Below the pieces are notes generated by a model that made no database searches, was not told the origin of the DNA, and saw only the letters and a list, made by a program, of their open reading frames with translations. Positions 1-58,055 of a stretch of DNA of 64,000 nt are shown here, in pieces. Source of the DNA: a virus; IMG/VR virus record IMGVR_UViG_3300023179_000039, positions 1 to 64,000 of that record. One strand, given 5' to 3'. Position 1 is the first letter of the stretch, and each line of letters starts with the position of its first letter. The translations under genes and the position numbers were made by a program.

Positions 1-789
1 GATACCGTTCATGTTCTTCAAGTCCTGCTCAAGTTCGACAGACCAGCGAGCGGCAAGGCGGCGTGTACCGGCCTCAACGGCTGTCTTTTCGAAGCTGACT
101 ACGACCTGAGGAATATTGCTGTTTAGCTCAAACTGGCTGAGCAACTGAGCAACACCACGGTCTTGATCGAGAACTGTAAAGTCGGCATTGCCGGACAATG
201 CAGTGCTCTGTGCACCGGTAAACCCGGTGGCAAGGAACTGATAGCCAAGCTCAGGATTGCTGGATAAAGCCTGTTTCCAGGAATTACCGCCAAACTGAGT
301 GGCACCGGTGTTACCATCGATGCTACCAGTCTGATAGCCTAAGCTTGTGGGTTCGTACTTATAACGGAGGGCAAAAGCAAGGCCTACTGGACCGCTCATG
401 GGCTGAACGCCAACGATTTCGTTAGTGATCAACTCAGGGAACGTACGGCGAATCATCGGAATGAGGATCTTAGGAAGACGAGCATCGCCTTGAGCATAAG
501 CACCGTCATTCTGTGAAGGGAACTGGTTGCCATAAGCACCATTATTAACGGAGCCAAATACGCTTGTACCTGAACCTCCGCCAAAACTTCCACCAGCAAC
601 GTTGCTTGCTTCGAAGCACCACTTCTCTTGGTTTTCCAAAAGGATAGCGGTGTTTAAGCGAGTGTGATCGTCTTCAATAGCGCGGACGTTATCGGAAGAG
701 TAATCCAGAACTGGACCCCACTTCTCGAGAAGTACCCTAGCGCGTGACTCATCAATGTAAGCCTGTGTAGGACGAATTTGTTTAGCCAT
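1..789 (-). CDS. 23: Major capsid protein gp23, 3' end outside the window
   Basis: Builds the hexamers of the T4-like head shell. Translating the complement from the ATG at 789 gives about 263 residues with no stop before the window edge. Diagnostic gp23 text is RRTFPELITNEIVGVQP, then MSGPVGLAFALRYKY, and near the edge ARWSVELEQDLKNMNGI. T4 gp23 loses about 65 N-terminal residues to the gp21 protease. Here the best matching site is CFE|ASNVAGG, after residue 60. Codons end in C or G more often than in most neighbours, as expected for a very highly expressed gene. It lies downstream of the scaffold gene 22 on the same strand. Unlike many late genes here it has a real leader, with GGAG 12 nt before the ATG and a doubled promoter-like element upstream. 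Confidence 0.97.
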   Translation of the reverse strand, partial: MAKQIRPTQAYIDESRARVLLEKWGPVLDYSSDNVRAIEDDHTRLNTAILLENQEKWCFEASNVAGGSFGGGSGTSVFGSVNNGAYGNQFPSQNDGAYAQGDARLPKILIPMIRRTFPELITNEIVGVQPMSGPVGLAFALRYKYEPTSLGYQTGSIDGNTGATQFGGNSWKQALSSNPELGYQFLATGFTGAQSTALSGNADFTVLDQDRGVAQLLSQFELNSNIPQVVVSFEKTAVEAGTRRLAARWSVELEQDLKNMNGI

Positions 790-887: not shown

Positions 888-1772
888 TTAGTATTTTGAA
901 AGCTCGCTCATGTAGTTATTAAAATGAGGATCTGTATCATTTTTTTCTACTGGAGCAACTGATTCTTCAACTACAGGTCTGTCAACTTTAGTAGCTACAG
1001 ACTCTGTTACTGCTTCTGTTTTTAGCGTCTTGAGCCGCTCTTCCTCTGTCTTTTCAAACAGATTTAAAGTATAATCAAAGTTCTCTTTAACGAACTCTGC
1101 AGACTTACCATTAAGCATCTTCTTCATATATGATTTTTTATCATCATCTAGAGAAGAAACTCTTTCTTCAAGAGTAGCACGAGCATTAAGCTTCTTGTTC
1201 TCTTCTGTAAGTCTAGCTACTTCTTTAGTAGCGGCTTCAAGCTGGCTAGCAGCTTCATCTAATCTCTTCTTACCATCGATAACGGCATCTTTAATGCTAT
1301 CTTTTGATAGCGCCATATCGACGGATAGAATCTGACGCATATTCTCTAATAGAGAAATGGCCTTTTTGTTCTTTACAGCCTCATTAATTGAGGTTGAGGG
1401 AAGCTTTTCTTCGAGGTAAAGATCTAAGTATTTGCTTAGCTCACTTACAATCGAACTCTTGAACTCAGTAGCTTCTTTATTGAGAGCAGCTTCATACTTC
1501 TCAACTACTGTTTTTAGCTTTGCAGCGCGATCAGTATCAATAGCTTCAACAACCTTTTTAAGCTTGTTGGTATGATCTGTATCCATTGCTTCAACTAAAG
1601 TCTCTAATTTCTTTGTATAATCAGCATCTTGTTCGGAAAGAGCTTTTTCAACGTGTATCTGTACTCTCTCATTAACAGAAGCATCAAACGCAGCTTCGAT
1701 TTCCTTAAGAACATCCTCAGTAAGAATATCCTTTGTAGCTTCTTTCAATACTTTGCTGATGTTATTGTCCAT
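888..1772 (-). CDS. 22: Prohead core scaffolding protein gp22
   Basis: Main internal scaffold of the T4-type prohead, later degraded by the gp21 protease. The 294 residues are almost wholly charged and helical, with long predicted coiled coils at about residues 45-110 and 160-215. They include the near-repeat MDTDHTNKLKKVVEAIDTDR. T4 gp22 is of similar length (269). The identification rests on composition and on its place between genes 21 and 23, the T4 order 21-22-23. The C-terminus FNNYMSELSKY is typical of T4-like gp22 proteins. No late octamer lies directly before the ATG, so it is probably read from upstream promoters together with the small gene and gene 21. Confidence 0.9.
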   Translation of the reverse strand: MDNNISKVLKEATKDILTEDVLKEIEAAFDASVNERVQIHVEKALSEQDADYTKKLETLVEAMDTDHTNKLKKVVEAIDTDRAAKLKTVVEKYEAALNKEATEFKSSIVSELSKYLDLYLEEKLPSTSINEAVKNKKAISLLENMRQILSVDMALSKDSIKDAVIDGKKRLDEAASQLEAATKEVARLTEENKKLNARATLEERVSSLDDDKKSYMKKMLNGKSAEFVKENFDYTLNLFEKTEEERLKTLKTEAVTESVATKVDRPVVEESVAPVEKNDTDPHFNNYMSELSKY

Positions 1773-18162: not shown

Positions 18163-19017
18163 TTATTTCGAATATATTCGCTTTGCTGCGACAATATTAT
18201 TCTTAACATCTTGTATTTCATAATTATACATTCTACCATGGTCATCTTTTATTGTAAAAACAACACCTTTCTTAGGATCAGTTCCGGAAGCTGTTGAAGA
18301 AGATGGAGTTTGTCTGGTTGTACTTTGTGTTGTAGGTGTTGTTGTAGCCGTGGTTGAAGTTCCTGCAGGAGCTGTTCCTGGTAATCCTCCAGATATAACC
18401 TGACCTTGTGTAACTTGCCCTGCACCCTGTATAGTACCTGAAGATGTAGTACCTGGTGTTACTGCAGTAGCTGATGTCTGACCTGGCTTTTGTTGCTGCT
18501 GACCGCCTGCTAGCAATGCCTTTACGTCATTAATGTCAAACTCTTCTATATCTTTATCAGGCTTATTCATATCTTTCATAGCATTGTAAGCATTGCTTAC
18601 ACCCTGCTTAACCATACCGGTGGGGTTATTACCTAAGAAAAAATTTCTTGCTGTTTTTACCGGTGAATCTAATGCCGCTTTACCTGCTGCTATAGCGGCG
18701 CCTGCACTAAATTTTCCAGCAGTTTTTGCAGCGCTACCTATATTTTGTGCTGCAGCTCCTACTACACTTCCAACACCTTGTTTTAGCTGGCTTAAGCCAC
18801 TCTTTACACCCGGGGTTGCAGCTGCTGTAGCTCTACCTAACCTGGTAGCCATACTAGGAGTATTTTGCTGTTGCTGTTGAGCTTGTTGTTGCATTTGTCT
18901 AGCATGGTTTGCAACATTATTTCTATAAGCCTGTGAAGTCGGTCTTCTTATAAATGAAGACATAGGAGCTTCATTTAATATTAAATCTACTAAATTATCA
19001 AAATTAAGATGCATCAT
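18163..19017 (-). CDS. Low-complexity late protein with capsid-targeting-like N-terminus, 284 aa
   Basis: The N-terminus MMHLNFDNLVDLILNEAPMS has the T4 internal-protein pattern: a short amphipathic stretch ending in L-N-E before AP, a likely gp21 site. The body is low complexity: a Gln run (about 42-52), an Ala/Gly/Val-rich helical part (60-145), a second Gln run, then Thr/Ser/Gly/Pro repeats (175-245). The last 35 residues form a compact unit, GVVFTIKDDHGRMYNYEIQD with VKNNIVAAKRIYSK. Likely a head-interior or other virion protein. It is coupled to the upstream 145-aa gene by a 14-nt overlap. Confidence 0.65.
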   Translation of the reverse strand: MMHLNFDNLVDLILNEAPMSSFIRRPTSQAYRNNVANHARQMQQQAQQQQQNTPSMATRLGRATAAATPGVKSGLSQLKQGVGSVVGAAAQNIGSAAKTAGKFSAGAAIAAGKAALDSPVKTARNFFLGNNPTGMVKQGVSNAYNAMKDMNKPDKDIEEFDINDVKALLAGGQQQQKPGQTSATAVTPGTTSSGTIQGAGQVTQGQVISGGLPGTAPAGTSTTATTTPTTQSTTRQTPSSSTASGTDPKKGVVFTIKDDHGRMYNYEIQDVKNNIVAAKRIYSK

Positions 19018-21822: not shown

Positions 21823-22230
21823 GTGGATAACATACTAACTAAGTGTACTGAGATTTCATATGCTTTATTAAAGAAGCATGGTAATTATCGTTGCAAGCAT
21901 TTCTCGTTTATTTTTCAAAGAAATAGGCTTATTTCCATAGGTATTAATAATCCGACTAAAACGCATCCAAAAAATTTAGAAATTGGGTTTTTTAATAAGA
22001 GGGGTGAAGATATATCTCATACCGTTGGTGTACATTCTGAGCTTTCTGCTATTTTAAAACTTGGAGAAGAAGATTGCTCCAAATTTACATTAGTTAATAC
22101 AAGAATTAATCGTAATCACCAATTAGATTTCTCTAAACCATGTGAAGGATGTACATCTCTTCTAGAGCAGCTTAACTTAAGAAAGATTTATTATTCAACA
22201 ATTAAAGGTTACCAGTTCTTACAGCTGTAA
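21823..22230 (+). CDS. Cytidine/deoxycytidylate deaminase-like protein
   Basis: A 135-residue zinc deaminase-fold protein. GVHSELSAILKLG supplies the His71 ligand and Glu73 proton donor, and PCEGC the two Cys ligands (107, 110). The arrangement H-x-E...P-C-x2-C is the superfamily signature. Whether it acts on cytidine, dCMP, a tRNA or a pterin-like substrate cannot be decided. It is short and lacks the extended insert of T4 dCMP deaminase. GTG start set by the early-type promoter. The 3' end overlaps the convergent 95-aa gene by 22 nt. Confidence 0.8.
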   Translation: MDNILTKCTEISYALLKKHGNYRCKHFSFIFQRNRLISIGINNPTKTHPKNLEIGFFNKRGEDISHTVGVHSELSAILKLGEEDCSKFTLVNTRINRNHQLDFSKPCEGCTSLLEQLNLRKIYYSTIKGYQFLQL

Positions 22231-22496
22231 TATTTAGGTGTCCCCGGTTTTGCAGACGAGCATTTATGCCTAGCTCTAAATGATTTACGTCTTTTTGGAT
22301 TTGATTTTTTTATGCGCAATCCCGGGTCACCGTAATGAATTCTCTTTAATTTACCGTCTACTCTAGCACAACGCATGTATTTCTTGTCTGAACGTGTAGA
22401 AGATTGCTGCCCAGTAACCTTTGTACAGCGAGAACCTTTTTTCTCTTCTAATATATCTTGTTCCAATGCATTGATAAACGCTTTCTCGAATAACAT
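22209..22496 (-). CDS. Cys/Arg-rich virion-type protein with capsid-targeting-like N-terminus, 95 aa
   Basis: N-terminus LFEKAFINALEQDILEEKKG ends in I-L-E|E, a likely gp21 site. The body (KYMRCARVDGKLKRIHYGDP, then KKSNPKRRKSFRARHKCSS and TPKYYSCKNW) is a sequence type I recognise from proteins of marine T4-like phages. It is a compact Cys/Arg/Lys-rich module that could bind nucleic acid or metal. The strong positive charge suits a protein packed with DNA in the head. The promoter is the perfect T4 consensus TATAAATA, 5 nt from the ATG. Confidence 0.75.
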   Translation of the reverse strand: MLFEKAFINALEQDILEEKKGSRCTKVTGQQSSTRSDKKYMRCARVDGKLKRIHYGDPGLRIKKSNPKRRKSFRARHKCSSAKPGTPKYYSCKNW

Positions 22497-23172: not shown

Positions 23173-23829
23173 TTATTTTAGCTTGGCGTTAAACAGATTA
23201 TAAATTTTTGGATCAAACTTACCAATTACGCTTGTAACAATCTCTTTACGCTGTTGTTCGTTTGCCGCCTTATACATATTTCTTAGTTCAGTAGCACTTG
23301 TTATAGCTTTTTTTCCTATATTAAAAGTTATAGTACCCGGTGAATATATATAGCCATGTCCACCGGCTTCTTTAAACGGAACCATTTCATTTAAATTTTT
23401 AAAAGGCTGAAAATATGTAGGTGTACCTTTTTTAGTCATACCAAAAGAAAATCGAGGATCCTCTTTCATATCTTTCTCTCCTACAACATAAATTACTTTG
23501 GCAATATTAGAATCATAATCTTTTAAAATTTCTAATGGCTTATAAGGCTGTTTTACTAATCTTATCTCTTGTTCGGGTATACCTGCAGCCATCATAATTT
23601 GTTTTTTTTCATTGAAGTTAAATGGATAACGACCTGGGTCTTTTGCAGCATCTTTTGTGGGCATATCAGAAGTAGCTATAAAAAAATCTGCACCTGGAAA
23701 TTGCTTTTTTGCCATATCAAAAAATCTCTTATGACCTATATGAAAAGGTTGAAAGCGCCCAGGAAAAATTACAATCAAATTATTTTTTTGATGCATTAAA
23801 ATTTCATTTACTAATTTGTCAAATTTCAT
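23173..23829 (-). CDS. Adenylyl/cytidylyltransferase-like protein (NMNAT-type)
   Basis: A 218-residue HIGH-motif nucleotidyltransferase. VIFPGRFQPFHIGHKRFFDM (HIGH at residues 30-33) matches the NMNAT/NadM-like 'GRFQPFH.GH', and ITSATELR near residue 180 is the second nucleotide-binding motif (IS-x-T-x-x-R). The enzyme class joins a nucleotide to a phosphorylated partner with release of PPi. The N-terminus MKFDKLVNEILMHQKN is targeting-like but its cleavage site is unclear. Its start overlaps the stop of the ligase-like gene (ATGA), and I recall this pair adjacent in related phages. Confidence 0.8.
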   Translation of the reverse strand: MKFDKLVNEILMHQKNNLIVIFPGRFQPFHIGHKRFFDMAKKQFPGADFFIATSDMPTKDAAKDPGRYPFNFNEKKQIMMAAGIPEQEIRLVKQPYKPLEILKDYDSNIAKVIYVVGEKDMKEDPRFSFGMTKKGTPTYFQPFKNLNEMVPFKEAGGHGYIYSPGTITFNIGKKAITSATELRNMYKAANEQQRKEIVTSVIGKFDPKIYNLFNAKLK

Positions 23830-25040
23830 ATTGTTGCTCCCGGAGTTAAGGTACCTCTCAAAATATCCTTACTGTATGGTGGCGTTGTTTGATAGTTATT
23901 GGCTTTAACTACTTTATCTGTATTAAAAAGCTGTCCCTTTATACCATACTCTTCATTTTCATTTCTTTTAGCAAATTTACCAGCTTCTTTTCCAGTTATA
24001 AAGCTACCAGTAATTTTTACCGGATTTGTTGATACACTAGGATCTCTTATCACAATGCCCTCTTGTGTATTTAATGATCCTAATTTTGATGAAGCAGCCT
24101 GTTTAATGACATCGCCTAGAACGATAGTAGCATGATAAAGTAAAGCTCCATTTATAGCTTTATTAATAACATCTTGATTATCTCCAATGTATTGATGCAT
24201 TGGTACACCTGCAGTTACATTTTTATAATTTTCTAAGCTCATAGCACTTATAGTTTTACCAGAAGCAAGTTTTATTTTTTCAGCTCTAGGGTTAATAGCT
24301 TTAGCTAACCACTTACCTAAAGGCTGTGAAACTATATTTCTTGTATCATAATTTACAGTAAATTCTGAATTTAAAACGCTATTAAAATTAACATTTCCTA
24401 ATTCAACAGCAAATTCGTGCTCAACATCAAAACCATATTTTTTAGCAATAGGATTTACTTTTTCTATTAACGATAATAATGCCTTTTTATCATAAGATAT
24501 TTCTCTTGATGCTCTTCTAATACTACCTTTAACAGGGCTCTTAACTTCTATAATTTCGTTTAAACCGTGAATGGCAAGAAAGTTATTTGCATATCCAATA
24601 ACGTTGGTTGCACCTTTTACAAATTCCATATTAAAAAGAATTTTAGGATTATTCCACATTTTAAGTTTTTTTAGTTCAGGCTCTATATTAGGAATAGCAG
24701 TATTAAAAATATTGAGTACAGTTTTTCCTGTCTCTATCATTCCATGGCCTTCAGGAAATCTTGATGTAAGCTTAGCTATAGTAACACCTTCTACGTCCTC
24801 AGGTTTATTAGAACCTCTATCCATAGCAAACTCTTTATTACCTTCTTCATTAGTAATAAGCTTTATTGATGCGTTAACTCCGTCAATTTTTACAGAAGAA
24901 GGTTTCTTTTTTAAGCTAATAGCAATTTTATTAAAGACATTTATTAAGTCTTTACCACTATTAACATTAGGTAAATCAAAAGGATGGGCCATATGCCCGG
25001 CTACTCCACCCTCAACTAAAAACTGTTCAAACGTTATCAT
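23826..25040 (-). CDS. Ligase-like nucleotidyltransferase (DUF6267 type) with capsid-targeting N-terminus
   Basis: A 404-residue protein of the type labelled DUF6267 in T4-like phages. N-terminus MITFEQFLVEGGVAGHMAHP gives L-V-E|GG, a strong gp21 site. It carries the covalent nucleotidyltransferase motif set: SSVKIDGVNA, with K-x-D-G at residues 51-54 (motif I); ILFNMEFV at about 134-141 (motif III-like); EGIVIRD at 327-333 (motif IV); and VKITGSF at 341-347 (motif V). These are the motifs of RNA/DNA ligases and capping enzymes, though ligase activity is inferred. Motif order and spacing fit, with a long insert between III and IV. It overlaps both neighbours by 4 nt in a five-gene late block. 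Confidence 0.75.
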   Translation of the reverse strand: MITFEQFLVEGGVAGHMAHPFDLPNVNSGKDLINVFNKIAISLKKKPSSVKIDGVNASIKLITNEEGNKEFAMDRGSNKPEDVEGVTIAKLTSRFPEGHGMIETGKTVLNIFNTAIPNIEPELKKLKMWNNPKILFNMEFVKGATNVIGYANNFLAIHGLNEIIEVKSPVKGSIRRASREISYDKKALLSLIEKVNPIAKKYGFDVEHEFAVELGNVNFNSVLNSEFTVNYDTRNIVSQPLGKWLAKAINPRAEKIKLASGKTISAMSLENYKNVTAGVPMHQYIGDNQDVINKAINGALLYHATIVLGDVIKQAASSKLGSLNTQEGIVIRDPSVSTNPVKITGSFITGKEAGKFAKRNENEEYGIKGQLFNTDKVVKANNYQTTPPYSKDILRGTLTPGATI

Positions 25041-26456: not shown

Positions 26457-26906
26457 TCATTTTAATTTAGGGTCGTTACTATACTTTTGCATTACAGAAA
26501 GAAGCTGCTTATATTTAGCCATAAAATTATTTTCATTTATAGATTTTACAAATGCTCTATAATGTGGATTTTCTATTTTCTGAGGATTGTCTTCGTAATT
26601 TTCATTTGTATTAATTGCATCTTGTAATCCTTCTCTTACTTGTGTAGCATTTTCCTGTGTAATAGGAGTTGTAAATAAAGCATCAATAGAACCAGCAGGT
26701 ATATTCATTACAAGAGCCTTAGCAAGCATTCTTACCATATCAACATATCCCTCGGGCGGTATAGCAGTTTGCTGTTCAGTTGAGGGTTGAGGCGCAGGCT
26801 GCTCTGCAGCAGGCGCAGGTGCCGCGGCATCCTGAGTATTCATATCTTGTTGAGGTGCTTCAGTTAACGTAGAAAATAAGGATTTTAACTTATTGTTAAA
26901 TGTCAT
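26457..26906 (-). CDS. Late protein with capsid-targeting-like N-terminus, 149 aa
   Basis: The start is the ATG at 26906, 5 nt after the octamer; an in-frame ATG at 26930 lies upstream of the promoter. It begins MTFNNKLKSLFSTLTEAPQQ: L-T-E|AP is a clean gp21-type site. An Ala/Pro/Gln-rich linker (about 20-55) leads to a helical region (VDMVRMLAKALVMNIPAGSI, then QVREGLQDAINT). First gene of the minus-strand cargo block that runs to the nucleotidyltransferases. Confidence 0.7.
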   Translation of the reverse strand: MTFNNKLKSLFSTLTEAPQQDMNTQDAAAPAPAAEQPAPQPSTEQQTAIPPEGYVDMVRMLAKALVMNIPAGSIDALFTTPITQENATQVREGLQDAINTNENYEDNPQKIENPHYRAFVKSINENNFMAKYKQLLSVMQKYSNDPKLK

Positions 26907-26911
26907 ATTAT

Positions 26912-26919
26912 TATTTATT
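26912..26919 (-). promoter_or_regulatory. Late promoter octamer, cargo block 26906 to 23173
   Basis: AATAAATA ends 5 nt before the ATG at 26906. It appears to serve the four closely packed genes that follow. Confidence 0.65.
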
Positions 26920-27489: not shown

Positions 27490-27518
27490 ATTATAGCCGC
27501 TTTTTTAAATGTTATCAA
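27490..27518 (-). promoter_or_regulatory. Sigma70-type promoter, 186-aa gene
   Basis: Minus strand TTGATA (27513-27518), 17 nt, TATAAT (27490-27495), then 6 nt to the ATG at 27483. Confidence 0.55.
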
Positions 27519-27924
27519 GAAAATTCTTTGGCGGCCTTCCAATCCTTACATTTATAATACCGTTATAATAATCTTCTCTCATTAAAACGTTTTTTGCTAT
27601 CTGCTCAGATATTTCAAAGTAAGCTAGCTCCCATTTAGATCCACATGCTCTTAGAATTTTAAAGATAAATTTATCTTTACCATATTTTTTAATATCTTCA
27701 TTTAGCTCAGTCGATGAGCTTGTATATTCTTTCCAATCAGATTCTTTAATTTCAATTCTTTTATTTTTTCTGCCTTTTAAAGGCTTTTTTTTTAATTTTG
27801 ATTTACATTGCTTTTTACCAATATACTTCTTGCCGGTGACAGTATTAGTAATTTCGTAAATAAACCCAAACGTATTCTCGTTAACTGTTACGTTTTCGCT
27901 TAATATCCAATGACCTAGATCCAC
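27505..27924 (-). CDS. GIY-YIG-type nuclease-like protein, 139 aa
   Basis: FGFIYEITNTVTGKKYIGKK carries the 'GfIYkItN..nGKkYIGKk' start of a small phage family common in marine T4-like genomes. ESDWKEYTSSSTELNEDIKK, then KFIFKILRACGSKWELAYFE with its conserved Glu, and REDYYNGIINVRIG complete it. Probably a structure-specific or homing-type endonuclease; the specific role is unknown. It starts at GTG. Confidence 0.75.
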   Translation of the reverse strand: MDLGHWILSENVTVNENTFGFIYEITNTVTGKKYIGKKQCKSKLKKKPLKGRKNKRIEIKESDWKEYTSSSTELNEDIKKYGKDKFIFKILRACGSKWELAYFEISEQIAKNVLMREDYYNGIINVRIGRPPKNFLDNI

Positions 27925-27927
27925 AAG

Positions 27928-28185
27928 TTATTTAGATGTTTTAAGAACTAATCCAGGTAAAGGACGACGCTGTACAAAAAACTTTTTCTTCTTTTTCTTT
28001 GCACCTAAAACTTTAGGCACTCTAGCATCACCCGGTGCATATGCATTATCGTTTTGTGAAGGAAATTGATTACCAAATTCTCCAGATAACCCTTTTACTC
28101 CAAATATACTGTCAGCCCCTCCAGCAACGTTTACAGTTTCAAGTAGTTTTAAAAATTTTGATTCAAATAAACCAATTGATTTCAT
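27928..28185 (-). CDS. Mini-gp23: short protein copying the capsid protein N-arm, 85 aa
   Basis: The first 16 residues (MKSIGLFESKFLKLLE) look like a capsid-targeting peptide ending in L-L-E. Residue 17 onwards reads TVNVAGG, parallel to gp23 after its predicted cut (ASNVAGG). Residues 38-60 repeat gp23 residues 87-109 with 19 of 23 identical: GNQFPSQND, AYA, GDAR and PK are shared. Downstream is a basic tail (GAKKKKKKFFVQRRPLPG) absent from gp23. It is therefore a partial paralogue of the major capsid protein with its own targeting peptide. An AT-rich octamer-like element (TTAAATAA) lies about 14 nt upstream. Role unknown. Confidence 0.75.
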   Translation of the reverse strand: MKSIGLFESKFLKLLETVNVAGGADSIFGVKGLSGEFGNQFPSQNDNAYAPGDARVPKVLGAKKKKKKFFVQRRPLPGLVLKTSK

Positions 28186-28211
28186 ATATGTTTATATTAT
28201 TATTTAATTTA

Positions 28212-28604
28212 ATGCTGCTAGAAGAATATATAAAAGAGCTTGAAAACGACTTAAAAATAAGTGAATTAGAGCTCAAAGATTATCAGTTAAAATTACCAGG
28301 CATCAAGCATAAGTGGGCCGGTAGATGTATTCGACATAAGTTAGAGCTCAACGATTTACGTAAAAAGCGCGATTTGCTTAAACGTACTTTAGTCGAAAAG
28401 CTTCAAGAACAAAGCCCGGTAAAGCTTAATCTACCTGTTGCTGAGCGTACAGTTGAAAAGCATAGCGAGCTTGTAGAGCTTGACAATAAGCTTAAACAAC
28501 TAGAGCTTGTAGTTGAGCTACTAGAAAAATCAGAAAAAACACTAAGCGCTACATCTTATGACTTGAAGAATATTATTGACATTATCAAACTTGAAACGAC
28601 ATGA
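28212..28604 (+). CDS. uvsY: Recombination mediator UvsY
   Basis: Loads UvsX recombinase on gp32-coated ssDNA. The ATG at 28212 gives 130 residues (T4 UvsY has 137). A longer in-frame ORF exists upstream but would overlap the opposite-strand mini-gp23 gene. The protein is fully helical: MLLEEYIKELENDLKISELE, then KHKWAGRCIRHKLELNDL, in the region where UvsY has 'L.SKWL......K.K....'. The C-terminal helix is QLELVVELLEKSEKTLSAT. It directly precedes uvsW (ATGA overlap), the T4 neighbourhood, which carries much of the assignment. Confidence 0.8.
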   Translation: MLLEEYIKELENDLKISELELKDYQLKLPGIKHKWAGRCIRHKLELNDLRKKRDLLKRTLVEKLQEQSPVKLNLPVAERTVEKHSELVELDNKLKQLELVVELLEKSEKTLSATSYDLKNIIDIIKLETT

Positions 28605-30070
28605 TTACTTTTGCTTTAGACGAAAAAAAGGGAATGGGTGTCATCACCGGTGATTTATTTGAAGATATAAGAGAATCATTTTCAGTAAAGAATGAAGCCG
28701 CGGTATTTATTCGCCGCAAATACGGTAGGTTTCTCCCTCAAAGAACATATGCGATTACCCCTACAGGTAGATTTGATCCCGGATTATATTTTGAAATAAG
28801 AAAATACCTTACGAGTAATAATTATGTTGGTGAAGTAAAGACAGACGAGTCTCTTTTTAAAGCTATTCTTCCTGCTAAAAAATGGCAAGAAAGTACAAAT
28901 TTTAGTAATAATATAATACCTCTTTCTTTACCATTACGAGACTATCAAGAGGAAATAGTTAAAAAGGCTTTCTCTATAGGAAGAGGAACTATAGTTCTTG
29001 CAACTGCTGGAGGTAAGACTCTTACTGCTGCCTCTTTACTTACAAAAATATTTTTACAGTACGGTAGATCGTTTCGTTGTCTATATATAGTTCCAGATTT
29101 AGGACTAGTAGAACAAACATATTCTGATTTTATTTCATATAATGTACCTTTCTCACTTCGTAAGTGGACAGGAAAATATGGAATAGAAGATGAAAAAGAT
29201 GCTCCCTCAAACGTAATTATTGCTAATTTAGGAATTTTACAAAGTAAAAATACAGATCTTTCTTGGCTATCAAATATTGATGCGCTATTTGTAGATGAAG
29301 TTCATAAAATTAGAAAAGGCAATGAAATTAACAAAATCTTAAAAACTATTAAAACGTCTGTACGCTTTGGGTTTACAGGAACTATGCCTGAAAATCCATT
29401 AGATCAATGGAATATCATTGGTAAAATTGGCCCGATTATATATGAAAAGAATAGCTATGAATTGAGATTGGAGAATTTTGTAAGCAATGTTCAAGTACAA
29501 ATTTTAAAACTCATCTACAAAGAAGATCCTTTTAAGGATGTAGTTATTTCTTCATCTAATCTATTTAGAGAAGAGCAGAGATTTTTAATGCGCAATAAAT
29601 TTAGAAATAGCGTTCTAAGTAAATTAGCATGTAAGCTTAATAATAATGTTCTTATTTTAGTAGATTTTATTGAGCACGGTGAAACAGTATATAATGCTAT
29701 TAAAGAGTTATGCCCCGGAAAGCAGTGCTATTTTATTCGCGGTGAAGTAGAAGTAGCAGAAAGAGACAAAATTCGTAAGCTAATGGAAGATCATTCAGAT
29801 GTAGTAGTTGTAGCTATAACAAAAATATTTTCAACAGGTATTAACATTAAAAACTTACACTATATTATTTTTGCATGCGGTGGCAAGGCAAAAATAAAAA
29901 TTGTTCAGTCAATAGGCAGAGGCCTTCGCTTGCATAAGGATAAGGATAAGCTTATAATATTCGACATTGCTGATAATTTCAAGTATAGCTTAGCACACAT
30001 GGAAAAAAGAATAAATTTATATGAAAAAGAAAAAATCCAATTCTCCGTCAAAGAGATTAAAGAAAGTTAA
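28601..30070 (+). CDS. uvsW: UvsW-type superfamily 2 helicase
   Basis: A 489-residue helicase (T4 UvsW 502). Motif Q/I: LRDYQEEIVKKAFSIGRGTI, then ATAGGKTLTAA. Motif II: FVDEVHKIR (DEVH). Motif III: FGFTGTMPE. Motif VI: IVQSIGRGLRLHKD. The N-terminal ~100 residues form the small UvsW DNA-binding domain. UvsW branch-migrates and unwinds R-loops, moving T4 from origin to recombination-dependent replication. Coupled to uvsY by ATGA, and its 3' end overlaps gene 55 by 50 nt. Confidence 0.95.
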   Translation: MITFALDEKKGMGVITGDLFEDIRESFSVKNEAAVFIRRKYGRFLPQRTYAITPTGRFDPGLYFEIRKYLTSNNYVGEVKTDESLFKAILPAKKWQESTNFSNNIIPLSLPLRDYQEEIVKKAFSIGRGTIVLATAGGKTLTAASLLTKIFLQYGRSFRCLYIVPDLGLVEQTYSDFISYNVPFSLRKWTGKYGIEDEKDAPSNVIIANLGILQSKNTDLSWLSNIDALFVDEVHKIRKGNEINKILKTIKTSVRFGFTGTMPENPLDQWNIIGKIGPIIYEKNSYELRLENFVSNVQVQILKLIYKEDPFKDVVISSSNLFREEQRFLMRNKFRNSVLSKLACKLNNNVLILVDFIEHGETVYNAIKELCPGKQCYFIRGEVEVAERDKIRKLMEDHSDVVVVAITKIFSTGINIKNLHYIIFACGGKAKIKIVQSIGRGLRLHKDKDKLIIFDIADNFKYSLAHMEKRINLYEKEKIQFSVKEIKES

Positions 30071-49973: not shown

Positions 49974-51005
49974 GTGTTAGTTCCTACCGAATATATACTG
50001 CAAAAATTCTATCAATATGCAGGCTACCCGCAATTTAAGAAAACAAGCAATACGTATATTGCAGGGTGTCCAATTTGTAGGGAGGGTAAATCGTGGGGTA
50101 AGAAGAGAAGATGTATTTTTATACCTGAAGATGGTGTTGTATGTTGTCATAATTGCGGGTGGTATAGTAATGCTGTAAAATGGATAACTGAGGTATCTGG
50201 TCTTTCGTTCTCTGAAATAGTAAACGAATCTAAAGAATTTGATGTGTTGCCATTAAACGTGTATCAAGAAGAAAAAAAGCCTGTTAAAAAACCAGCTGCT
50301 ACTTTACCTTCTGATTGTATAAATTTGTTTGATTCAAATCAGATAGATTTTTATAAAGATAACTCAGTAGTAAAGGATGCCTTAGAATTAATTAAAAATA
50401 GAAAATTAGATGTAGCTATTAATAGACCGGATACGCTGTGGGTTACTTGTAAAGACAAGATTCATAAGAATAGAATAGTGATACCTTTTTATGATGAAAA
50501 CAATAATATTATTTTCTATCAAACCAGGCTCATATATAAAAAAGATGAGCGAATGTATCCAAAATATCTAAGCAAGGTAAACGGTGAAAAGTCACTATAT
50601 AATGTTAATAAGATTTCATCTAATTTAGAATATATTTTTATTTTTGAAGGCCCTATAGATGCTTTTTTTGTTAAAAATGGAACAGCTGTTGCTGGTATTC
50701 AAGAGAAAAGTTCTAATACATTTTCTACACTACAAGAGCATCAAATGTTATCTTATAAATTTTTTAATAAAATATGGGTATTAGATAGTCAGTGGCAAGA
50801 TAAAGCTAGCAGAAATAAAACTAATAAATTAATTGAATCTGGTGAAACAGTATTTATTTGGCCTGAAAACGTTGGTAAAAAATATAAAGATATTAATGAG
50901 ATGTGCGTGGACAGAGACTTATCTCAAATAGATCCAGAGTTTATAATTAGTAACTCACACAAAGATATGAAAGCCAAGCTTTTAATGTCTATTATCTGTC
51001 GTTAG
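49974..51005 (+). CDS. 61: DNA primase gp61
   Basis: Synthesises primers for the lagging strand with gp41 (343 residues; T4 342). N-terminal zinc ribbon: IAGCPICREG and VVCCHNCGWYSNAVKWITEV. Toprim-like catalytic core: NRIVIPFYDENNNIIFYQTR, YIFIFEGPIDAFFVKNGTAV (the E-G...D acidic set) and KIWVLDSQWQDKASRNKT (second acidic strand). GTG start set by the promoter. The 3' end overlaps the convergent cargo-like gene by 14 nt. Confidence 0.93.
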   Translation: MLVPTEYILQKFYQYAGYPQFKKTSNTYIAGCPICREGKSWGKKRRCIFIPEDGVVCCHNCGWYSNAVKWITEVSGLSFSEIVNESKEFDVLPLNVYQEEKKPVKKPAATLPSDCINLFDSNQIDFYKDNSVVKDALELIKNRKLDVAINRPDTLWVTCKDKIHKNRIVIPFYDENNNIIFYQTRLIYKKDERMYPKYLSKVNGEKSLYNVNKISSNLEYIFIFEGPIDAFFVKNGTAVAGIQEKSSNTFSTLQEHQMLSYKFFNKIWVLDSQWQDKASRNKTNKLIESGETVFIWPENVGKKYKDINEMCVDRDLSQIDPEFIISNSHKDMKAKLLMSIICR

Positions 51006-51396
51006 CAGAAATAAGATATCCCTTTAACGATTCGCTTAGCGAGCTTAATTCTGAAGCAAGTCTCGCTATTTTCTTTTTTTCACTTCTAGCAATATCTTCA
51101 AAAATAGTATCACAAGCTGCTGTATGTAATTGTACTTGCATGCTTGAAGGTTCTGTACTATTTAAAAACTTAATGAATTCATCTATTTGAGAAATCCATT
51201 CTCTTAGCTTTTGAACTTGTTCTGTCTTTCTGTGATCCTGTACTTGCTCTCTACCACCTTGTACATCAAAATCTTCAGGCTTTGCATTAGTTAATGTCTG
51301 TGCCATAGCTTCTTTGTCGTTAGCAGGAGCAGCAGGTTCTGGGGTAGTTTCGTCAGCTTCTAAAAGCGTATAAAATCTTTTAACAAATGAACTCAT
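50992..51396 (-). CDS. Late protein with capsid-targeting-like N-terminus, 134 aa
   Basis: MSSFVKRFYTLLEADETTPE starts with a short amphipathic stretch ending L-L-E|AD, a likely gp21 site. An acidic Pro/Ala linker follows, then helices (KLREWISQIDEFIKFLNSTE, KIARLASELSSLSESLKGYL). Octamer AATAAATA ends 5 nt before the ATG. Probably packed in the head; function unknown. Confidence 0.7.
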   Translation of the reverse strand: MSSFVKRFYTLLEADETTPEPAAPANDKEAMAQTLTNAKPEDFDVQGGREQVQDHRKTEQVQKLREWISQIDEFIKFLNSTEPSSMQVQLHTAACDTIFEDIARSEKKKIARLASELSSLSESLKGYLISANDR

Positions 51397-51401
51397 ATTA
51401 T

Positions 51402-51409
51402 TATTTATT
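51402..51409 (-). promoter_or_regulatory. Late promoter octamer, 134-aa gene
   Basis: AATAAATA ends 5 nt before the ATG at 51396. Confidence 0.65.
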
Positions 51410-54268: not shown

Positions 54269-54273
54269 ATTAT

Positions 54274-54281
54274 TATTTAAG
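54274..54281 (-). promoter_or_regulatory. Late-type octamer, 106-aa gene
   Basis: CTTAAATA, a degenerate form, ends 5 nt before the GTG at 54268. It partly overlaps the end of the terminator tract. Confidence 0.4.
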
Positions 54282-55272: not shown

Positions 55273-55280
55273 TATTTATG
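55273..55280 (-). promoter_or_regulatory. Late promoter octamer, long acidic gene
   Basis: CATAAATA ends 6 nt before the ATG at 55266. Confidence 0.55.
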
Positions 55281-58055
55281 TTATATATGCCTAAAAAACA
55301 AGAAAGTCAATTTTATTTAGGAAATCAAAATTTACCCACAACAGATGCTGTATTTGATTATGAAGCACATCCAGAATGGGTACAAGATATAGCCAGATGT
55401 AGAAAAAATATATTATATTTTGCTGAGAACTTCTTCTATATTACCAATCTAGATGAAGGTAAGATGAAAATTAAACTTCATACTTATCAAAAGCGTATTT
55501 TAAGAAGTTTACGAGATAATAGATTTGTATGTTTATTAGCAAGTCGTCAAATTGGTAAAGCACTTGCTTTAGACACCCCAATACCTACTCCAGCTGGATG
55601 GACTACTATGGGTGAATTAAAAGACGGGGACATTGTATTTGGTTTAGATGGTAAAAGATGCAAGGTTGCAAAAGCTCATGATATTTTATTAAATAGAAAT
55701 TGTTATGAAGTGTTGTTTGATAATGGTGAAAAAATAATTGCTGACGAAGATCATTTGTGGTTAACACAAACTAGAGCCGAAAGACATAAAGAGATACAAG
55801 GTAGTAAAAAGACAACTAAAGAAATTTTCAATACTTTATTAACTAAATCTAAAACAAGACAAGAACCAAATCATAGAATTCCGGTTTGTTTGAATGGTAT
55901 AGAAACGAGTAGAAATTTACTACCAATAGATCCTTATGTTCTAGGATTTTGGTTGGGCGATGGAGCTTCTGAAGGCGGTACAATAACTGTTGGTAAAAGA
56001 GATTTAGATAATGTTATCTCTATTCTTAAAAATAATCAAATGCAGTTTAACAATTTAATTGTACATAAATACAATAAAAATGCTTTTACAGTGCGCATTA
56101 CAACCAGCAAAAACGTAAAGACTGAAAGTTTAAGCACATTATTAAAGGAAAATAATTTAGTTTTTAACAAACATATACCGCAAGAGTATATGTTAAGTAG
56201 CAGAACACAAAGATTATCTTTACTGCAGGGGTTAATAGATAGTGACGGCTATATAACAAAACATGGTATAGCTCAATTTTATAATACAAATTTAAATTTA
56301 GTAAAGCAGGTAAGAGAACTTATTGAAAGTTTAGGATACAAAGTAACTTACAAAGAATTTATTCCAAAACTCAGAGGTGTTGAATGCAGTAAAGTAGGCA
56401 CATTGACTTTTACTCCTTATGAAGAGGTATGTCTTTTAGACTTTAAAAAATCTAGACTAAAGAAAATAACTAAAAAAGAAAACGTTTCTAAATTAAGAGC
56501 TCAATGGCATTACATTAAATCTATAACCCCTGTAAAATCTGTGCCCGTTAGATGTATAACTGTAGATAATGAAACAGGGACATTTTTATGTGGAAAACAG
56601 TTTATTCCAACAAGTAATACTACATTAATGACAATATATGCTTTGTGGATAGCCTGTTTTTTTGAAGACCAACGTACTCTCATTGTCGCTAATAAAGAGC
56701 AAACAGCAATTAATATTTTTAAGAGAGTTCGTTTAGCTTATGAAAAACTACCAAACTATCTTAAACCAGGAACCGTAGAATATGGGAAAACATCAATGTC
56801 TTTGGGAAACGGGTCTAGTATTGGTATTTCGACGACAAGTAGTGATGCAGGCCGAGGCGATAGCTGTAATGTTTTAATTTTGGATGAGTTAGCATTTATT
56901 GACAACCATCTTGTTGAGCAATTCTGGAGTTCAGTATACCCAATTATTTCATCGTCCAAAAAATCTAAAATATTTGTTGCATCAACGCCAAACGGAACCG
57001 GTAATCTTTTTCATGAATTATATTCTGGGGCAATAGAGGGTAAAAATGATTGGCATGCTGAAAAAGTTGATTGGTGGGAGTTTCCCGGGCGTGATGATGT
57101 CTGGAAAGAAAAAACAATTAAAACTTTAGGCAGTAGAGAAGTTTTTGATCAAGAATTTGGTAATGTATTTTTACAAGCCGGAGAAAGTGCCATCGATGAA
57201 AAACTTTTTGAAGAAATGAAAACTGAATGTATTGAACCTAATTTTATTTTTGAAGAAGGAAAATATTTGATGTGGGAAGAGCCCTCACAGGATAAAATTT
57301 ATGTCGTCGGAGTCGACATAAGCGAAGGCGTAGGAGAAGCTGCAAGTGTTGTTCAAGTTTTAGATATTACGGATTTGAGAGAAATAAAACAAGTAGCAGT
57401 TTATCATGACCGTACAATTAGCCCTTACAATTTTACAACTAAGTTACACGAAATCTTAAAGCACTGGGGATCACCTCTTGCCATGATAGAAAGAAATAAC
57501 TGCGGTGCACAGGTTGTCGATCAACTTAAAAATACTATGGGATATGAAAATATAGTTTCATATGGAATTAAATCTGGACCGGTTTCGTTTAATAAAATTG
57601 GCGTACAAGCCCATACCAACACAAAATATAAAGGTGTAATGAATATGCGGTATTGGATGTCAGAATTAAAAGTATTAAAAATTAGAGATTTAAAAACGTT
57701 AAACGAATTAAAAGGGTTTGTTCGCTATCCTAACGGCACATGGGCGGCTAAACAAGGTTCAGATAGCTGGGATGATAGAGTAATGAGTCTTATGTGGGGG
57801 CTAATGATTTTAGAAAACGGGTTAGTGGAAAAATATTTTGAAATTGTAGAGTTTGATAATAATAAAAAACCATTAAAATTAAAATCTTTAGATTATGGAA
57901 TTAAGTATTTTCTAAACCCTGCATCAATTTATAACAATGAAAAAAATGGCTTAGAAGGGTTACCACCTTTACCTATAGTAATACAACAACAAGATAATAA
58001 TGATTTTAATGAAATAGCTGATTTAGAATCACAAGGCTACCGCCGAATTCAATAA
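55278..58055 (+). CDS. 17: Terminase large subunit gp17, split by an intein
   Basis: DNA-packaging motor. The ORF encodes 925 residues; removing the intein (95-447) leaves 572 (T4 610). N-extein: HPEWVQDIARCRKNILYFAE, then VCLLASRQIGK up to Lys94. C-extein resumes TTLMTIYALWIACFFEDQRT, rebuilding Walker A as SRQIGKTT. VLILDELAFID (about residue 531) is Walker B. FVASTPNGTGNLFHELYSG is the coupling motif. The nuclease domain has VVGVDISEGVGEAASVV (about 675) and SWDDRVMSLMWG. Start could be 55278 or the ATG at 55287. No promoter of either class is well placed. The next gene has its own late octamer. Confidence 0.96.
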   Translation: MLYMPKKQESQFYLGNQNLPTTDAVFDYEAHPEWVQDIARCRKNILYFAENFFYITNLDEGKMKIKLHTYQKRILRSLRDNRFVCLLASRQIGKALALDTPIPTPAGWTTMGELKDGDIVFGLDGKRCKVAKAHDILLNRNCYEVLFDNGEKIIADEDHLWLTQTRAERHKEIQGSKKTTKEIFNTLLTKSKTRQEPNHRIPVCLNGIETSRNLLPIDPYVLGFWLGDGASEGGTITVGKRDLDNVISILKNNQMQFNNLIVHKYNKNAFTVRITTSKNVKTESLSTLLKENNLVFNKHIPQEYMLSSRTQRLSLLQGLIDSDGYITKHGIAQFYNTNLNLVKQVRELIESLGYKVTYKEFIPKLRGVECSKVGTLTFTPYEEVCLLDFKKSRLKKITKKENVSKLRAQWHYIKSITPVKSVPVRCITVDNETGTFLCGKQFIPTSNTTLMTIYALWIACFFEDQRTLIVANKEQTAINIFKRVRLAYEKLPNYLKPGTVEYGKTSMSLGNGSSIGISTTSSDAGRGDSCNVLILDELAFIDNHLVEQFWSSVYPIISSSKKSKIFVASTPNGTGNLFHELYSGAIEGKNDWHAEKVDWWEFPGRDDVWKEKTIKTLGSREVFDQEFGNVFLQAGESAIDEKLFEEMKTECIEPNFIFEEGKYLMWEEPSQDKIYVVGVDISEGVGEAASVVQVLDITDLREIKQVAVYHDRTISPYNFTTKLHEILKHWGSPLAMIERNNCGAQVVDQLKNTMGYENIVSYGIKSGPVSFNKIGVQAHTNTKYKGVMNMRYWMSELKVLKIRDLKTLNELKGFVRYPNGTWAAKQGSDSWDDRVMSLMWGLMILENGLVEKYFEIVEFDNNKKPLKLKSLDYGIKYFLNPASIYNNEKNGLEGLPPLPIVIQQQDNNDFNEIADLESQGYRRIQ
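55560..56618 (+). mobile_element. Intein with LAGLIDADG endonuclease in the terminase Walker A loop (class 3-like)
   Basis: 353 residues. N-terminal block A: ALALDTPIPTPAGWTTMGEL, with Ala at position 1 instead of Cys/Ser. Block B: KIIADEDHLWLTQ, holding Trp161. Endonuclease motifs: LGFWLGDGASEGG (about 222) and LLQGLIDSDGYI (about 315). Block F: VPVRCITVDNETGTF, with Cys426. C-terminus: FIPTSN|T, with Thr445, Ser446 in place of the usual His, Asn447 and +1 Thr448. The Trp-Cys-Thr set with a non-nucleophilic residue 1 matches what I know of class 3 inteins, which begin splicing from the block F Cys. The endonuclease would let it spread into intein-free terminase genes. Confidence 0.93.

What the first reader, a model, noticed from the sequence alone, without database searches (positions are those of the whole stretch)
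27928..28185. An 85-residue protein mimics the mature N-terminal arm of the major capsid protein
After a targeting-like peptide ending L-L-E, the product reads TVNVAGG; gp23 after its predicted gp21 site reads ASNVAGG. Residues 38-60 match gp23 residues 87-109 at 19 of 23 positions. The copy ends there and continues into a lysine-rich tail. Register at the cleavage site is exact, so after maturation both proteins would display the same arm. It could plug capsomer contacts, cap a special vertex, tether cargo or regulate gp23 assembly. I know of no described protein of this design, but such a gene may exist unnamed in relatives.
Basis: seen in the sequence. Interest (0 to 1): 0.82.

Follow-up and report, generated by a model that had tools for sequence, protein, structure and literature searches.

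The report
Free copy of capsid's N-terminal anchor
This phage, like T4 itself (gene 61.1) and many relatives, encodes a small head protein that carries a second copy of the tip by which the main shell protein locks onto its neighbours, joined to a positively charged tail; no paper we could find describes such a protein, and T4 makes its function testable at once.

Summary
Confirmed. The ORF (minus strand, 27928-28185, 85 aa) has a capsid-targeting-like leader ending in an L-x-E protease motif, a copy of the segment gp23 exposes after cleavage, and a lysine-rich tail. In T4 that segment is the N-fist (gp23 66-91), which locks neighbouring subunits together; the copy ends at the N-fist boundary.

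It is a real, conserved gene: 45 distinct orthologs, one in all 74 independently sampled loci with enough flank, dN/dS 0.13 (0.11 in the copied part), late-promoter-like motif. Identical residues in gene and gp23 use different codons (137 of 372 the same, 168 expected), so this is neither recent duplication nor gene conversion. When gp23's N-fist changes type, the copy tends to change too.

Whole-genome scans with each phage's own N-fist found the same design in cultured phages: T4 gp61.1, with the cleavage Glu in register, and its relatives (tblastn: 1,437 records), plus P-HM1/P-HM2, S-SM2, P-RSM6, Syn33 and S-CRM01. All are unexplained "hypothetical" proteins (a few are called "major capsid protein").

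Most likely the freed N-fist docks into gp23 sites and anchors the basic tail or other cargo to the shell. Docking, processing and presence in virions are inferred.

The parts
27928..28185 (-). N-fist mimic gene, 85 aa (whole ORF with stop)
   Evidence: 45 distinct orthologs; a gene of this design at this position in 74 of 74 sampled loci with enough flank
28138..28185 (-). capsid-targeting-like leader MKSIGLFESKFLKLLE, ending in L-x-E
   Evidence: P1-P3 L-x-E in most orthologs; variant leaders MITFQQFYKE / MITFNQFCSE resemble T4 IPII/IPIII MKTYQEFIAE and T4 gp61.1 MKTFKEFIKE; dN/dS 0.20
28003..28137 (-). copy of gp23 N-fist (residues 17-61)
   Evidence: 66% identity to gp23, E = 7e-12; dN/dS 0.11, lowest of the three regions; codons differ from gp23
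27931..28002 (-). lysine-rich tail plus VQRRPLPGL motif (residues 62-85)
   Evidence: K-run and R73 R74 invariant or nearly so in alignment A1; dN/dS 0.16
28196..28207 (-). late-promoter-like motif TTAAATAATAAT
   Evidence: 15 matches in window vs 5.9 expected; TAAATA-type motif upstream of the mimics, and ATAAATA upstream of gp18, gp19, gp20 homologs. Promoter function inferred
1..789 (-). gp23 major capsid protein, N-terminal 263 aa (runs off window)
   Evidence: Pfam Gp23 E = 2e-31; PDB T4 gp23 E = 5.5e-11
475..606 (-). gp23 segment corresponding to T4 N-fist (residues 62-105)
   Evidence: phmmer alignment places L105 at T4 mature position 26, i.e. residue 91; T4 N-fist = residues 66-91 (PMC7136217)
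1996..2667 (-). gp21 prohead protease homolog
   Evidence: 35% identity to T4 gp21, E = 1e-25
888..1772 (-). gp22-like scaffold
   Evidence: position between gp21 and gp23; weak match to T4 gp22, E = 0.001
28212..28604 (+). conserved 130-aa gene divergent from the mimic, in front of uvsW
   Evidence: 46-90% identity among relatives; synteny
28601..30070 (+). UvsW helicase homolog
   Evidence: T4 UvsW E = 1e-38
27505..27924 (-). resident SegE-type GIY-YIG gene directly downstream
   Evidence: Pfam SegE_GIY-YIG E = 2e-30; same place in nearly all loci with enough flank

Best explanation
The gene encodes a late, minor head protein. Its leader sends it into the prohead core. gp21 cuts after the Glu that ends the leader and frees an N-terminus that repeats the N-fist of mature gp23. 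This loose N-fist docks, without a capsid domain behind it, into N-fist sites of the gp23 lattice, most plausibly sites with no partner of their own, such as those around the portal vertex. The attached basic tail, or in other phages a larger domain, is thereby fixed to the shell wall, probably facing the DNA. Shown: architecture, conservation, selection, copy boundaries, correlated change with gp23 and the same design across T4-type phages. Inferred: late expression, packaging, cleavage, docking, location and the role of the tail.
For: (1) Copy starts at the gp21 site and ends at the N-fist/N-arm border. (2) dN/dS 0.106 in the copied part, 0.198 leader, 0.158 tail. (3) 372 identical residues between the copies and their own gp23, only 137 with the same codon, 168 expected by usage. 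(4) Own gp23 is the better match: far-T4 pairs p = 0.004, cyanophage-type p = 0.0002, Straboviridae p = 0.03; P-HM1 and P-HM2 differ by the same Q/P change in both proteins. (5) T4 gp61.1 aligns ungapped to gp23 58-94, cleavage Glu on Glu. (6) In phages without an obvious leader (P-HM1/2, S-CRM01, Syn33) the N-fist lies at or near the translated N-terminus, and in long forms (Stupor, PVA8) a Glu precedes it: a free N-fist N-terminus is the common outcome. (7) The N-fist contacts four subunits and moves outward on expansion (PMC9958956); T4 N-arm Met98 meets the portal whisker inside the capsid (PMC7136217), so a tail leaving near residue 91 can reach the interior.
Against: No protein evidence: gp61.1 is absent from the part of the T4 head composition table of PMC9026906 that was read, and a PDB search with its sequence finds only gp23 itself as a phage head protein. 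The T4 tail KKKKEESKEKEE is nearly neutral overall. Some genomes carry mismatched types (G021 and G039), so a match to own gp23 is not obligatory. Among far-T4 pairs the own-match signal comes from one three-genome clade (p = 0.30 without it; clade), and the partial Mantel test is only p = 0.09. No second copy was found in S-PM2, S-MbCM7 or AG-345-F15. No T4 late promoter was seen near 61.1.
Confidence: 0.5

Rival explanations
1. Regulator of the gp21 protease: the protein offers a leader plus cleavage site and N-fist as a competing substrate or brake, a functional counterpart of T4 Inh.
For: It sits divergently from uvsW, where T4 has inh; T4 inh is annotated as a minor head protein inhibitor of protease; a Glu precedes the N-fist in most forms.
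Against: No similarity between T4 Inh and gp23 or the mimic. The best-conserved part lies about 20-45 residues beyond the cleavage site, not around it. P-HM1/P-HM2 copies have no leader or processing site before the N-fist. T4 has both inh and 61.1.
Confidence: 0.12
2. Assembly regulator in the prohead: the loose N-fist competes with gp23 N-fists before expansion and so tunes head size, expansion or the number of closed contacts.
For: Same evidence for docking as the best explanation; a leader would place it in the core at the right time.
Against: N-fists are disordered until expansion in T4 (PMC9958956), so competition before expansion has no known site; the conserved basic tail and the larger C-terminal domains in other phages are unexplained.
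Confidence: 0.13
3. Injected effector or decoy: the basic part is delivered into the host (as T4 IPI is), or the N-fist distracts a host sensor of capsid protein; capsid attachment is only a loading device.
For: Leader-bearing IPs are injected and IPI inhibits a restriction enzyme (PMC9026906, PMC9958956); capsid-sensing immunity exists (PMC9712102, title and abstract only); C-terminal parts vary between phages.
Against: Effectors in arms races usually vary fast, whereas the gene is under strong purifying selection and present in all 74 sampled loci.
Confidence: 0.12
4. Relic of a partial gp23 duplication or a tract carried by the neighbouring GIY-YIG endonuclease, without function.
For: A SegE-type GIY-YIG gene lies directly downstream.
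Against: dN/dS 0.13, fixed synteny, conserved leader and tail, codons unrelated to gp23, same design in distant phages.
Confidence: 0.01

Closest known systems
T4 gp61.1 (NP_049649.1; PHROG 1823; unknown function)
   Same: Leader of the IP type (MKTFKEFIKE), then an ungapped copy of its own gp23 N-fist in cleavage register, then a K-rich tail
   Different: No detectable profile relation outside the leader region (HHalign 19 columns, 78%); different N-fist because gp23 differs; lies before primase gene 61, not beside uvsW; lacks the VQRRPLPGL motif
T4 internal proteins IPI, IPII, IPIII
   Same: Short N-terminal targeting leader ending in a Glu predicted as gp21 site (PMC9026906)
   Different: Mature parts of the IPs are not known to copy gp23; IPs are abundant and poorly conserved
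Prochlorococcus phage P-HM1/P-HM2 protein PHM1_169/PHM2_171 (PHROG 4187)
   Same: Own gp23 N-fist at the N-terminus followed by a very basic stretch
   Different: No targeting leader; 234 aa with a long C-terminal part; different locus (near gene 61)
T4 Inh (gp21 inhibitor, minor head protein)
   Same: Genome position relative to uvsW
   Different: 226 aa, no similarity in sequence or architecture
T4 gp24 vertex protein
   Same: Derived from gp23 by duplication according to PMC9958956
   Different: gp24 keeps the whole HK97 fold; the mimic keeps only the N-fist. No second Gp23-family gene was found in eight records of this clade, several of them incomplete
Hoc and Soc decoration proteins
   Same: Small accessory capsid proteins
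   Different: Bind outside with their own folds and do not reuse gp23 sequence (general knowledge; PMC10385173 for Hoc, abstract only)

Membership tests
Leader-bearing, gp21-processed T4-type internal head proteins | N-terminal targeting leader of about 10-19 residues ending in L/I-x-E | tested here: met
   MKSIGLFESKFLKLLE|; P3-P1 L-x-E in most orthologs; MITF.. variants resemble IPII/IPIII MKTYQEFIAE
Leader-bearing, gp21-processed T4-type internal head proteins | gp21-type protease encoded in the same genome | tested here: met
   gp21 homolog at 1996-2667, E = 1e-25
Leader-bearing, gp21-processed T4-type internal head proteins | Presence in prohead core and observed cleavage | not testable with these tools
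   needs proteomics of the phage or of T4
PHROG 1823 / T4 gp61.1 | Match to the family profile | tested here: not met
   no PHROG match for the window protein; HHalign only 19 columns around leader and site, probability 78%
PHROG 1823 / T4 gp61.1 | Leader + own gp23 N-fist in cleavage register + K-rich tail | tested here: met
PHROG 1823 / T4 gp61.1 | Location next to primase gene 61 | tested here: not met
   window gene lies beside uvsW/SegE; T4 61.1 beside 61
T4 Inh | Sequence similarity to Inh | tested here: not met
   no BLASTP hit
T4 Inh | Inhibition of gp21 | not testable with these tools
   needs a protease assay
HK97-fold capsid proteins (gp23/gp24) | Capsid fold domain | tested here: not met
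   no Pfam match; similarity stops at the N-fist border
GIY-YIG homing endonuclease passenger DNA | Sporadic presence or flanking target sequence | tested here: not met
   mimic and SegE-type gene keep the same place in the loci examined

The most novel reading that the evidence does not exclude
The N-fist is a shared anchor module: most T4-superfamily phages, T4 included (gp61.1), encode at least one extra protein that carries the N-fist of their own major capsid protein at a free N-terminus, made by leader cleavage, by internal cleavage or directly by translation start, and use it to fasten basic tails or other domains to the inner face of the expanded shell or its portal vertex.
Probability: 0.45. 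Interest if true: 0.9.

Novelty: new variant of a known kind. Interest (0 to 1): 0.82.

Why it matters
It gives a concrete, testable hypothesis for a conserved T4 gene with no known role (61.1; tblastn hits in 1,437 phage records) and for unexplained cyanophage and freshwater far-T4 genes. If the docking model holds, T4-type phages reuse the locking tip of their capsid protein as an attachment device, which bears on how internal proteins are held, how the portal vertex is sealed, and how cargo could be loaded into T4 heads. It also explains why some annotators call these small proteins 'major capsid protein'.

Tried and rejected
Gene conversion or recent copying: rejected by codon comparison. 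Homing-endonuclease passenger: rejected by fixed synteny. Homology to T4 Inh despite position: rejected. Filling sites left empty by gp24: not general, since no gp24 was found in eight records of this clade. Profile search with cyanophage N-fists was not run because alignment A3 is too variable; replaced by scans of whole genomes with each phage's own N-fist. Pfam, PHROGs and tblastn of the window protein against cultured phages gave nothing, and neither did the diverged MITF-type copy. A scan of bacterial genome contigs gave no relative. PDB search with the mimic profile gave nothing relevant. A first version of the Mantel script failed and was redone with 17 pairs. Literature: gp61.1 appears only by name in two papers found (one read in part); the '61.1' in PMC9026906 is part of a DOI. 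Melnitz-1 and phiN3 copies are weak (scores 40 and 48; z = 5.3 and 7.1) and are not counted as secure. Structure prediction was not run: single chains only, and the protein is expected to be mostly disordered alone.

Full report
What is there. On the minus strand at 27928-28185 lies an 85-codon ORF. Its product has three parts: a leader MKSIGLFESKFLKLLE, a stretch that repeats gp23 after its predicted cleavage site, and a lysine-rich tail ending VQRRPLPGLVLKTSK. The genome is a distant T4 relative: gp21 and UvsW are recognisable against T4, gp23 is matched by cultured phages at about 34% identity or less over most of its length in the rows shown, and the known freshwater far-T4 group (PMC4360716) is the likely home.

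The copied segment is the N-fist. In T4, gp23 residues 66-91, directly after the gp21 site, form the N-fist, which touches four subunits; it is disordered in the five gp23 subunits that face the portal (PMC7136217; PMC9958956). N-terminal regions of gp23 move from the inside to the outer surface on expansion and become ordered (PMC9958956). The alignment to T4 puts window gp23 L105 at T4 residue 91, so the N-fist here is residues 62-105, and the copy runs from the cleavage site to about residue 109. Both ends of the copy therefore fall on structural borders.

It is a conserved gene. Scans of viral contigs returned many relatives; 45 distinct proteins were collected. A sampling that did not use the mimic, through the divergent 130-aa neighbour, gave 80 loci; in all 74 with enough flank a gene with leader, N-fist-like stretch and basic tail sits at the same place, some strongly diverged. 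The order gp43, glycosyltransferase, 46, 47, sigma, uvsW, 130-aa gene, then divergently mimic, SegE-type gene and followers, is kept across the loci examined, with small gaps and contig ends. Nei-Gojobori dN/dS over 114 pairs is 0.13 overall and lowest in the copied part (0.106; leader 0.198, tail 0.158). A TAAATA-type motif precedes the orthologs, similar to ATAAATA motifs before tail and portal genes of the window, which suggests late expression.

It is not a recent copy. In 15 genomes with both genes on one contig, 372 aligned residues are identical but only 137 use the same codon, against 168 expected from codon usage alone. The protein likeness is kept by selection on protein sequence.

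The copy follows gp23. Far-T4 gp23 arms almost all read GNQFPSQND; three genomes (G011, G064, G065) have another type (TGGVFPGSPND and similar), and their mimics are of that other type too. Two of these were found as a prediction: contigs were searched for gp23 because their mimics were unusual, and both had unusual gp23. With 17 pairs the own-gp23 excess has p = 0.004, but without this one clade it is p = 0.30, and the partial Mantel test is p = 0.09. A second type (AGPGxxLGxWTDxGxQFP) occurs in the mimic of G021 and the gp23 of its relative G039, not in matching pairs, so exchange or replacement also happens.

The same design in cultured phages. A search with the P-HM2 N-fist showed a second place in that genome: PHM2_171 begins MMGAGGITNVGPINTQTTGKGAIMGFDPIL and continues SRRRTKKRKK. 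P-HM1 has TNVGPINTPTT in both proteins where P-HM2 has TNVGPINTQTT. Scanning whole genomes with their own N-fist then gave clear second copies in T4, S-SM2, P-RSM6, Syn33 and S-CRM01, weak ones in Melnitz-1 and phiN3, and none in S-PM2, S-MbCM7 and AG-345-F15. The T4 copy is gene 61.1, 54 aa, MKTFKEFIKE|DMVAGDSGGNPENISIGTTSGAVVNKGPEQIPKKKKEESKEKEE. phmmer aligns its residues 3-39 to gp23 58-94 without a gap, Glu10 on Glu65. tblastn with gp61.1 gives 1,437 phage records and 1,735 places. Own alignments have z-scores of 8.8 or more in all but the two weak cases, and own gp23 is preferred over others' with p = 0.03 (Straboviridae), 0.0002 (cyanophage type) and 0.00001 (all 15); the last figure includes deep family differences.

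A common outcome. The free N-fist arises in three ways: leader plus cleavage (T4, far-T4, S-SM2), a longer N-terminal part with a Glu before the N-fist (Stupor, PVA8), or translation starting at or close to it (P-HM1/2, probably S-CRM01 and Syn33). What follows varies: a short basic tail, or a basic stretch plus a further domain. In far-T4 one contig has a 210-aa fused form. This is what an anchor would look like.

Mechanism and limits. I take docking of the freed N-fist into gp23 sites, with the tail toward the DNA, as most likely (0.5). The interior position of the tail is inferred from Met98 of the T4 N-arm meeting the portal whisker inside the capsid. No step of processing, packaging or docking has been observed here, and gp61.1 is not in the part of the T4 head composition table that was read. 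HHalign does not establish common descent of the window protein and gp61.1 beyond the leader region; similar architecture by descent with a drifting N-fist, or repeated invention, are both open.

Prior knowledge. No paper found describes an N-fist copy; gp61.1 is named in two papers and no role is given in the passage read. The library lacks most subscription journals, so an earlier remark cannot be excluded.

Noticed in passing
55278-58055 (+): Terminase large subunit (gp17) appears to carry an intein-like insert next to the Walker A motif (ASRQIGK|ALALDTPIPTPAGWTTMGELKDGD ... FLCGKQFIPTSN|TT).
   Followed up: no
50992-51396 (-), 26457-26906 (-), 23826-25040 (-), 18163-19017 (-), 22209-22496 (-): Several other proteins start with leader-like sequences (MSSFVKRFYTLLE|AD, MTFNNKLKSLFSTLTE|AP, MITFEQFLVE|GG, MHLNFDNLVDLILNE|AP, MLFEKAFINALEQ), possible further internal head proteins.
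   Followed up: no
28196-28207, 26907-26918, 51397-51408, 54269-54280 and upstream of 58064, 58768, 61081: A/T-TAAATA(ATAAT) motif ends at or just before start codons of late and leader-bearing genes; looks like a late promoter with almost no leader RNA.
   Followed up: partly
27505-27924 (-): SegE-type GIY-YIG gene is a fixed resident of this locus, not a sporadic homing gene.
   Followed up: partly
L172 (contig of L160): One far-T4 mimic continues into a further C-terminal part (210-aa open frame) with DGPAI..YWINGK motifs.
   Followed up: no
G021 and G039 (L049, L058, L168, L196): The unusual N-fist type AGPGxxLGxWTDxGxQFP is in the mimic of one genome and the gp23 of its relative, not paired within either.
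   Followed up: partly
L213:14045-17500 (record bases 98045-101500): 1151-aa protein made mostly of TPT-rich repeats.
   Followed up: no
L420, L418, L417: Long gp61.1 forms (PHROG 2086 type) carry the N-fist at the C-terminal end of another domain.
   Followed up: partly
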